Below, piece after piece: positions 39,751-60,646 of a stretch of 64,000 nt of DNA. The translations under genes and the position numbers were made by a program. Each line of letters begins with the position of its first letter. Positions within the stretch are counted from its first letter, which is position 1. Under the pieces are notes generated by a model, which worked only from the letters and a program-made list of their open reading frames with translations, was not told where the DNA came from and did no database searches. Source of the DNA: Arabidopsis thaliana (Eukaryota > Streptophyta > Magnoliopsida > Brassicales > Brassicaceae); assembly GCF_000001735.4 (NCBI RefSeq), contig NC_003071.7, forward strand, positions 15,289,443 to 15,353,442, written 5' to 3'.

Positions 39751-42700
39751 TTACTTGTCTTGCTCCGGTGTAGAGCTGTACCACCCTAGAGTCAGAAACT
39801 GAGAAGGGTTAAACTCATCGTTCATCTCCTCAGAATGAGAAGGTCCTATCATCTCTGGTCCGGTGAATGAGGAAGCCAATAAGTTAGGTATTTCAGGTGT
39901 AACAACCGCAGCTTGGGACTCATTGTTCCTCTTCTGAGAATGAGAAGGGCCTGTCATTTCTGCTTGACGTTGGACTTGTCCAGTGAATGAGGAAGCCAAT
40001 GAGTTTGGTATTGCTGGTGTAACAACCGCAGCTTGCGACTCATCATTCCTCTTCTGAGAATGAGAAGGGCCTGTCATCTCTGGTTGACGTTGGACTTGTC
40101 TAGTGAATGAGGAAGCCAGTAAGTATTGAACTGTGGGTAGAAGAATCACATCGTTGGACTCATCGTTCCTCTGCCGAGAGTGATAAGGGCCAATCATATC
40201 TGGTTGTTGGACTTGTTCTGTGGATGAGGAAGCCAAGAAGCTTGGTGCTGTGGGTGAAAAAACAGCCATAGCGTTGTTGGACTCATCTTTTTTCTCCTGA
40301 GAGTGAGAAGGGCCAATCATATCTGGTCCCTGGACTTGTCCTGTGGATGAGGAAGCCAATGTGTTTGGTGGTGTGGCTGAAAAAACAACCGTAGTTCTGT
40401 TGGACTCACTGTTCCTCTTCTGAGAGTGAGAAGGGCCAACCATCTCTGGTTGTTGGACCGGTCCTGTGGATGAGGAAGCCAATGTGTTTGGTGGTGTGGC
40501 TGAAAGAACAACCATAGTTTTGTTGGACTCACTGTTCCTCTTCTGAGAGTGAGAAGGGCCAACCATCTCTGGTTGTTGGACCGGTCCTGTGGATGAGGAA
40601 GCCAATGTGTTTGGTGGTGTGGCTGAAAGAACAACCATAGTTCTGTTGGACTCGCTGTTCCTCTTCTGAGAGTGAGAAGGGCCAACCATCTCTGGTTGTT
40701 GGACCGGTCTTGTGGATGAGGAAGCCACCAAGTTTGGTGTTATGGATGGAGCAACCATAGCTTTGGACACATACTTCCTCTTCTGACGCGAATTTGTGAT
40801 CAACGGCCAGAAACTTCCAATCACAACCTATAAAAAGGAATTATAAGATATAGCTTCAAACATTGAACCATATGCATAAACAAAGAAGATGCTTTGTGTT
40901 CTTACTTGGACTGGACTTGCTGCAATGAGACTCCCAGCCAAAGCACCACCATGGACACGTCCACCAGCAGCTCCACCAATCGTAATCCGCCACCCTCCGG
41001 TCTTATTTTTCACTCCTCCGCTCTCAGATATCGCCATTGTATTATTGGTCAGCGATACTATCTCATACTCCTCCTACACCAAGTTGTTATCATTTTCTTA
41101 TCCATGTAAGACAACTTATTAATTCTATTTATAGACCAACTTTATAATGCATCCTTCCAATACATGAACCATTAGGTTATAAGATTGCACTGCAAGACCA
41201 AGTTTATCATATAAATATATACCTTAAACGTCATGACCCTGCGGCTTGAACCGTGAGGTAGAATCGTAACGTTAGCAACCGCACCATTTACTGACAAAAC
41301 ACTGATCCCACGAGAACCATTTGCAGTGAAGGACATGATCCTCTTGATTATATCCTGTAAAAAACACCATATATAAAAGACAAATAAAAACCTCTCATCT
41401 TCAACACATATATGCATATACAAAGACCAGATAAACAAAGCTGTTGCCTTAAGTCCATTGTTTCATCTCTCTTTTAGGTCACTAGAACTAATCTTATCTA
41501 TTCCTTCCATGTTTATAAAATTAGTAGGAGTGTTAAAGTGAGTTAGTTCACTCAATTCCAGTCAACGTATAATGAATTAGAATATTAATACTTCATGGTT
41601 TAGTTAAGTTCAGCTCATTTATTATGAGCTTATATTTATAGATTTGAATCCATATCATTCAACATTGTAAACATATGTAATAACAAAAATAATCCAGAAA
41701 AGTAAACTTCTAAAGTCTAAACAAATATATCCAGAAGAAACCCTACCTTTAAGAGCCAAAATATTCAAACAAAAATAAACCTAAATAAATAGTTGTCAAA
41801 TGCAACTATTGTATAATGGAAGTCAACTCTCTTCCATTTGAAAGTTTTAGATGATCTAAATCCCACGAAAACAACAAATGAATAAAAATATTACCGTTAT
41901 TGTATGTTGTAAAACCAAATAAAAACAAAAATATTACCGATATATAGAAATCAAACTTTATTCACGAATCTATTCATGACTCATTAGAGTTGATCCGTCT
42001 AATTTACTAACTTGAATACATTTGCTTACCTAATCCATGTATAAAAAGAATCTAAAACCATAACTCCAACTCATCAAGAACTCGATCGAGTTGAACTGAA
42101 CAAAATCTGTTCTTAAAGAGTTTCATTATACATTTTTTGCGTGGATTAAAAATTTATATAAATATTCGAATTCCGTTGTGGTGAATTGAAGAGAAATGTT
42201 ATTATACTTTGACTAAAGGATGATATTAAAAATCTAAAATCATAATTTTTAAAAACAAAAAGTTTTTTTTTTTCTACAACAACAAATGAAATAGAAAGTA
42301 TGCATATGTTATATATTTACCTCTCCTTTATTAACTGTGAAGCTATGCGGCGTGAAGTCCCCTCCTCCAAGCCTCATAGACATGTCACCTTCAATCAAAT
42401 TAAAAATACACTCAAACCCATCTGAATTCTCGTAGTTTGTTTAATAACAAATATAATTCTTACATGTTTAAGTAAAAAAAAACTAAATTGTCATGTTATG
42501 TCTTTTCCTTAGATTAATTTCCCTATGCCCTAACACAAGACAAGAGAATGTAGTTTTCCAAATACTTTCCACTGATTGATGAACCCTAGATTCATATTTT
42601 CTAATGGTTATTCTTTCTTAAGACATAGCAGATTTAGTTTTGTCCCATCGCCAATAACGAAACTCAAATAGTTATATTATCGTATTACATATTATTAGTT

Positions 42701-43005
42701 TTATTGTAAGAGACCAAAGCTTTACCTCTCCTCTTCCTCAACGATGACCTCGGCGTAAATGTCCCAGATGCTGTGATAAACCTCCCTTTATAATCACGAT
42801 ACGTCTTCGGCCTTTCTCTCTTCCTGCTCGCGTCGTTGACACCCTCCACCACCGTGGCTGGTGCCGCTTCGGCAGTCTTGGTGACCGGAAAGGGAGAGAT
42901 GGGCGTTGAGTTCGCGTCGTTGACACCCTCCACCACAGTGGCTGGTGCCGCTACGGCAGTCTTGGTGACCGGAAAGGGAGTGATGCAGGGCGTTGAGTTC
43001 GACAT
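39751..43005 (-). CDS. AT-hook/PPC (AHL-like) protein with C-terminal repeats
   Basis: Five exons: 42726-43005, 42321-42388, 41223-41354, 40906-41073 and 39751-40827, giving 574 residues. The PPC/DUF296 domain spans exons 2-4: GGGDFTPHSFTVNKGED, then SVLSVNGAVANVTI, then EEYEIVSL, and finally GGRVHGGALAGSLIAASPVQVVIGSF. AHL proteins bind AT-rich DNA in the nucleus as PPC trimers. The hook here is degenerate: KRERPKTYRDYKG replaces the usual KRGRP core. The N-terminus carries a 28-residue unit twice (PFPVTKTA.AAPATVVEGVNDA). The last exon holds eight repeats of about 41 residues built on ASSSTGPVQQPEMVGPSHSQ. Most AHL proteins are 300-400 residues, so this is a long, divergent member. The start is the first ATG (43003-43005). 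I recall At2g36560. Confidence 0.85.
39800..40790. repeat. Coding tandem array, about 120-123 bp unit
   Basis: Eight head-to-tail units in the last exon of the AT-hook gene. Units 2 and 3 (about 40,430-40,690) are almost identical at DNA level; the outer ones are more diverged and those toward the C-terminus are shorter. The unit is a multiple of three, so the frame is kept. Confidence 0.9.
42836..43003. repeat. Coding direct repeat, 84 bp, two copies
   Basis: Two copies of an 84-base unit (28 codons) encode the N-terminal PFPVTKTA.AAPATVVEGVNDA repeat of the AT-hook protein. Confidence 0.8.
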
Positions 43006-59884: not shown

Positions 59885-60646
59885 ATGGAATATTGGAGCA
59901 GCTCCTTCATCGATGGCGCGTCTTCTTCCAGCTTCATCTCTCCTTTCTATAACTTTGACCATTTTTCAGGTAACATGCATCCATAGTACTAGGTTTTAGT
60001 AGAGCTAGTTTATATGCTTAATGCTTAATCATTCACTCAACTGTATGTCGCTTTACAAGTCTCTCTCTGTCTTGTATTGAATTTGTAGGAAACCAAGACA
60101 ACAGATGTTTAGGTACAATGATGGGTGCACAACAAGATATACTTCATGTTCCTCTAGCAATGGTAGAGAGTGGCTATGGAGAAGAAAGCAACAGTTTTAA
60201 TGGACAGGAGAAGAAAAAAAAGAAGATGACGAGCGAGCAGCTAAAGTTCCTCGAGAGAAGTTTCCAAGAAGAGATAAAGCTGAATCCGGACAGGAAGATG
60301 AAGCTGAATCCGGACAGGAAGATGAAGCTGTCCAAAGAACTGGGGCTGCAGCCGAGACAGATTGCGGTTTGGTTCCAGAACAGGAAAGCCAGGTGGAAGA
60401 ACAAACAACTTGAGCATCTCTATGAATCACTAAGACAAGAGTTTGATATTGTCTCTAGAGAAAAGGAATTGCTACAAGAAGAGGTAATTACTCCAGTGAT
60501 CAATACTAACTTAATAAATAAGCTTTCGAGTTACAATCCATTGAGTTACTTTCACTTTGTTTCAACAGCTAATACAACTGAAATCAATGATAAGAGAGGA
60601 TAGTTCATGCAAGAAGAAACAAACCTGGGAAAAAGCCTGCAGCTGA
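59885..60646 (+). CDS. HB22: HD-Zip class I transcription factor HB22
   Basis: Three exons, 59885-59969, 60089-60483 and 60569-60646, give 185 residues, as recorded for AtHB22. The homeodomain starts near residue 70 ([19 protein letters not shown]) and ends with [18 protein letters not shown] at about 120-137. A leucine zipper follows at once (heptad positions near 136, 143, 150, 157 and 164). HD-Zip I factors bind pseudopalindromic CAAT(A/T)ATTG as dimers in the nucleus. The oddity is a perfect 24-bp tandem duplication (60277-60300 and 60301-60324) that repeats KLNPDRKM and adds eight residues between helix 1 and helix 2, so the homeodomain is 68 rather than 60 residues. I recall At2g36610. 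Confidence 0.94.
60277..60324 (+). repeat. Perfect 24-bp coding tandem duplication in HB22
   Basis: Two identical 24-base units, 60277-60300 and 60301-60324, encode KLNPDRKM twice inside the homeodomain. Confidence 0.97.

What the first reader, a model, noticed from the sequence alone, without database searches (positions are those of the whole stretch)
60277..60324. Eight-residue tandem duplication inside the HB22 homeodomain
A perfect 24-bp duplication repeats KLNPDRKM in the loop and start of helix 2, making a 68-residue homeodomain. HD-Zip I homeodomains are otherwise 60 residues with tight spacing. The unit is identical at all 24 bases, so the event is recent or conserved by conversion. 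It may change DNA recognition or the relation between homeodomain and zipper.
Basis: partly seen in the sequence, partly recalled or inferred. Interest (0 to 1): 0.7.

Follow-up and report, generated by a model that had tools for sequence, protein, structure and literature searches.

The report
Repeated eight residues in plant homeodomain
One Arabidopsis gene-regulating protein carries a small, fairly young copying slip that repeats eight amino acids in a loop of its DNA-binding domain; modelling suggests that the domain still folds, so this looks like a tolerated quirk worth testing rather than a new kind of protein.

Summary
A perfect 24-bp in-frame tandem duplication lies at 60277-60300 and 60301-60324, with identity running on to 60330. 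It repeats KLNPDRKM (homeodomain positions 25-32) in HB22 and makes a 68-residue homeodomain. The 16 other HD-Zip I homeodomains found in the same assembly lack it. It is the window's only perfect tandem duplication with period 10-399 bp apart from A or AT runs. The likely cause is slippage or unequal exchange at a 10/11-bp direct repeat already 24 bp apart. A single-sequence AlphaFold2 model (pLDDT 88) puts the first copy into a longer loop 1 and builds helix 2 from the second. The core superposes on solved homeodomains at 1.1-2.0 A, leaving out eight residues in 44 of 50 listed rows. Helix 3-to-zipper spacing is unchanged, so an effect on the zipper is not supported. Extra loop-1 residues are a recurrent homeodomain variation in print. 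Unit identity alone dates the event poorly; against HB51, the duplication is younger than about 36% of the HB22-HB51 split, barring conversion. No orthologue or other accession could be reached, so age, polymorphism and DNA binding stay open.

The parts
59885..60646 (+). HB22 (HD-Zip I, epsilon class) coding region, exons 59885-59969, 60089-60483, 60569-60646; 185 aa
   Evidence: GT-AG splice model and translation; kinship from the paralogue search and Pfam; ATHB22 = At2g36610 from papers (passages)
60205..60408 (+). 68-residue homeodomain (60 standard positions plus 8)
   Evidence: numbering anchored on W48; PF00046 51.2 bits, cut-off 22.9
60277..60300 (+). unit 1, KLNPDRKM; predicted to end helix 1 (KL) and form most of the lengthened loop 1
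60301..60324 (+). unit 2, KLNPDRKM, identical; predicted to start helix 2 at its Pro
60325..60330 (+). AAGCTG, the partial third copy, where period-24 identity ends
60272..60330 (+). AGATRAAGCTG at 60272-60282, 60296-60306 and 60320-60330: the imperfect (10 of 11) direct repeat that would have flanked one unit before duplication
   Evidence: read
60352..60483 (+). helix 3 and the first part of the leucine zipper, normal spacing

Best explanation
This is a single 24-bp in-frame tandem duplication in HB22, made after HB22 and HB51 separated. The likely cause (inferred) is replication slippage or unequal exchange between two near-identical 11-bp stretches, AGATAAAGCTG and AGATGAAGCTG, that lay 24 bp apart. 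The protein tolerates it because either copy can supply the residues that start helix 2. Copy 1 is extruded into loop 1 while copy 2 starts helix 2, so helix 2, helix 3 and the zipper keep their normal relation. I infer that HB22 still dimerises and binds the usual HD-Zip I site, perhaps with somewhat altered stability or backbone contact from the added net +2 charge. Shown: the duplication, its absence from 16 paralogues, its frame, unchanged zipper spacing. Predicted: the loop-out. Inferred: origin and near-neutral effect.
For: Perfect units and a sharp left edge. A 10/11 direct repeat flanks one unit; at HB51 the matching sites agree at only 6 of 11 (counted by eye). Absent from 16 of 16 paralogues. 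HB51's unit differs from HB22's at 7 of 24 bases while HB22's two differ at 0 of 24 (P about 0.00025 if as old as the split). HB22's HD-Zip region outside the repeat is constrained: dN 0.152 to HB51 with 42.5 differences at 47.8 synonymous sites, and distances to 14 outgroup paralogues within 3 of 80 residues of HB51's. Model: helix 1 at 9-25, helix 2 at 35-45 (from copy 2), helix 3/zipper at 49-91; mean pLDDT 88.2, and 82 and 86 in the ten-residue blocks 21-30 and 31-40. It superposes on Antennapedia 9ant at 1.2 A over 56 of 64 spanned residues and engrailed 2hdd at 1.2 A over 55 of 63, that is 8 left out; so in 44 of 50 listed rows (counted by hand).
Against: HB22 also bears K53 where 16 of 16 paralogues have R. 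Pfam scores its homeodomain 14 bits below HB51's (51.2 against 65.5), part of which is presumably the cost of the gap itself, and does not report the HALZ zipper model for the HB22 fragment at E<=0.001 (HB51's own HALZ match, 21.3 bits, is below the 28.1 cut-off). So weakened function is not excluded. Past purifying selection says nothing about the time since the duplication. No orthologue was seen.
Confidence: 0.6

Rival explanations
1. Hypomorph: the insert, with R53K, weakens DNA binding or stability and HB22 is drifting towards loss, covered by HB51/LMI1.
For: K53 unique among 17; low reported expression of ATHB22 (PMC2664812, passage); lower Pfam score.
Against: Intact frame, splice sites and zipper start; HB22 and HB51 are about equally distant from 14 outgroups, so no acceleration; confident fold.
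Confidence: 0.2
2. Gain of function: the longer loop 1 makes a new surface for a partner or for DNA backbone, as the three-residue loop extension does in TALE homeodomains (that role recalled).
For: Position is the TALE position, loop 1; the unit adds net +2 charge near the DNA backbone (charge from the sequence; geometry recalled).
Against: Nothing shows selection for the insert; the loop is a plain repeat.
Confidence: 0.08
3. Older insertion shared by several Brassicaceae, kept identical by conversion or chance.
For: Synonymous-only bound reaches 49 My.
Against: 0 of 24 differences against 7 of 24 to HB51 bounds it to about 36% of the split age, if there was no conversion.
Confidence: 0.1
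4. Assembly or sequencing artefact of the reference.
For: Perfect short tandem repeats can be mis-assembled; reads were not available.
Against: In frame, with a clear source repeat; 185 aa equals the length I recall for UniProt's ATHB-22 entry (recalled, not looked up); 54 bp is well inside one Sanger read.
Confidence: 0.02

Closest known systems
HB51/LMI1 (At5g03790), the epsilon-class paralogue
   Same: HD-Zip I, 62 of 80 compared residues identical with one HB22 unit set aside, same helix 3 to zipper spacing
   Different: single unit KLDSDRKV, 60-residue homeodomain, R53
TALE homeodomains (plants: KNOX, BEL; animals: PBC, MEIS and others)
   Different: three residues, ancient and conserved; here eight, a plain duplication, in an HD-Zip I protein
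Other length-variant homeodomains (WOX, HNF1, UNC-39)
   Same: loop insertions arising repeatedly (PMC4901127, passages; PMC4352023, passage)
   Different: WOX: one residue in loop 1 and four in loop 2; HNF1: long insert in loop 2; UNC-39: one residue in loop 1

Membership tests
HD-Zip class I | homeodomain | tested here: met
   PF00046 51.2 bits against cut-off 22.9
HD-Zip class I | leucine zipper directly after helix 3 with fixed spacing | tested here: met
   same spacing as the 16 paralogues; continuous helix 49-91. Against: HALZ (PF02183) was not reported for the HB22 exon-2 fragment at E<=0.001, and HB51's match is below its cut-off
HD-Zip class I | closest relatives are class I members | tested here: met
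   the 17 best distinct genomic places fit the 17 class I genes, HB51 first (17 members in PMC3060862, passage); which locus is which gene was assigned by recalled positions
HD-Zip class I | usual but not defining: 60-residue homeodomain | tested here: not met
   68 residues, 60 in the others. HB22 is filed here by homeodomain, zipper spacing and kinship, not by length
HD-Zip class I | binding of CAAT(A/T)ATTG as a dimer | not testable with these tools
   needs an in vitro assay
TALE superclass | three extra residues in loop 1 | tested here: not met
   eight extra residues, and HD-Zip kinship

The most novel reading that the evidence does not exclude
HB22 carries a young eight-residue loop-1 extension at the TALE position, made in one step, that gives an HD-Zip I dimer a new contact surface or altered backbone contacts and separates its function from LMI1; copy number may still vary among accessions because the flanking repeat remains.
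Probability: 0.08. Interest if true: 0.65.

Novelty: new variant of a known kind. Interest (0 to 1): 0.3.

Why it matters
It is a clean natural test of how much length loop 1 of a homeodomain tolerates, with a close paralogue as control. If the copy number varies among accessions it would link a slippage-prone repeat to a transcription factor's DNA-binding domain. If it is fixed and neutral it is a small curiosity.

Tried and rejected
Text searches for the repeat peptide or its flank found 0 papers; LMI1 with HB22 and Brassicaceae found 0; an accession recalled for the protein found 0. So I found no mention of the repeat in what I saw: listings and passages of nine papers. Most listed papers were not opened, none was read whole, and the library lacks most subscription papers. 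A genome-wide count of homeodomain lengths (PF00046) did not complete, so the control covers HD-Zip I only. A zipper-spacing effect was rejected. Pseudogene was rejected as the main reading.

Dropped from counts: HB1 (L015) from the relative-rate comparison, from its own row of the private-residue comparison and from homeodomain positions 1-12, because its reading frame is broken there (an intron, I take it); its loop 1 was read and is normal.

Own errors: and the last line used wrong starts or frames; one search failed for the same reason. and one search stopped on script errors; what they printed before is used, and the rest was redone.

Full report
What is there. The window is G000:C2:15289443-15353442 of a 119.66-Mb, seven-contig assembly, which fits Arabidopsis thaliana chromosome 2 (recognised by size and gene content). 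A splice model, 59885-59969, 60089-60483 and 60569-60646, encodes 185 residues. Its homeodomain runs from 60205 to 60408 and has 68 residues. Two identical 24-base units, 60277-60300 and 60301-60324, each encode KLNPDRKM, standard positions 25-32. Period-24 identity covers 30 bases and ends at 60330. Two hundred shuffles of the gene reached 13 at most. Among periods 10 to 399 no other perfect tandem duplication occurs in the window except A and AT runs, though imperfect longer ones do. The 24-mer has two exact places in the whole assembly, both here.

Paralogues. A search with one unit left out gave 39 matches; the 18 best rows are 17 distinct places, HB22 itself being split in two, and fit the 17 class I genes (PMC3060862 passages; loci listed in PMC9021843, passage; which locus is which gene I assigned by recalled positions). 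The 16 others lack extra residues between helix 1 and helix 2. HB22 also has four private residues within positions 6-60: M8, F15, N27 and K53; 16 of 16 paralogues have R53. That number is not unusual: HB51 also has 4, and the other members counted range from 0 to 14 (HB1 not counted). Homeodomains of other classes were not counted, as that search did not complete (last try).

Origin. With one unit, the site would read AGATAAAGCTG, then 13 bases, then AGATGAAGCTG: an 11-base direct repeat, 10 of 11 alike, at a distance of exactly 24. HB51 has 6 of 11 alike at the matching sites (by eye). Slippage or unequal exchange at that repeat would yield what is seen. This is inferred.

Age. Identity of the units is weak evidence of youth: with 4.33 synonymous sites per unit and a recalled rate of 7e-9 per site and year, 95% bounds are 49 My (synonymous only) or 9 My (all sites free). 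HB51's unit differs from HB22's at 7 of 24 bases; at that pace the duplication is younger than about 36% of the HB22-HB51 split, P about 0.00025 for the split itself. Conversion between the units would void this bound, and 24 bases give a rough estimate. It does not say whether A. lyrata shares the unit.

Function. The recognition-helix residues and zipper spacing match those of HD-Zip I, so I expect binding to the usual site. Outside the repeat the HD-Zip region was under constraint: dN 0.152 to HB51 with 42.5 differences at 47.8 synonymous sites (saturated), and distances of HB22 and HB51 to 14 outgroups differ by 0 to 3 of 80 residues. This covers mostly the time before the duplication. K53, low reported expression (PMC2664812 passage) and a Pfam score 14 bits below HB51's leave a hypomorph possible.

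Known or new. A review of homeodomain proteins (PMC4901127, passages) says that extra residues in loop 1 or loop 2 arose several times independently; TALE has three in loop 1 and HNF1A a long insert in loop 2. PMC4352023 (passage) gives WOX one extra residue in loop 1 and four in loop 2. An eight-residue exact duplication in an HD-Zip I protein is thus a new variant of a known kind. I found no mention of it in the listings and passages that I saw (searches), which does not show that none exists.

Noticed in passing
window 39858-40786 (minus strand): A minisatellite of 123-bp units, about 7.7 copies, 82% matches, lies within a 357-codon open frame 39751-40824 on the minus strand that reads PVQQPEMVGPSHSQKRNSES-type repeats.
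   Followed up: partly
window 42828-43001 (minus strand): An 84-bp duplication (93% matches) overlaps a 125-codon open frame that repeats about 28 residues (PFPVTKTA.AAPATVVEGVNDA).
   Followed up: partly
window 59885-60646 (HB22): The name AtHB22 seems to be used for two genes: PMC10383618 annotates an athb22 mutant studied with AtHB25 as At2g36610, the HD-Zip I gene here, whereas AtHB25's close relative AtHB22 is, as I recall, a zinc-finger homeodomain gene elsewhere. Phenotypes filed under At2g36610 may belong to the other gene (passages).
   Followed up: partly
window 60385-60387 (K53 codon, helix 3): HB22 has lysine at homeodomain position 53, where the 16 other HD-Zip I members have arginine.
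   Followed up: partly
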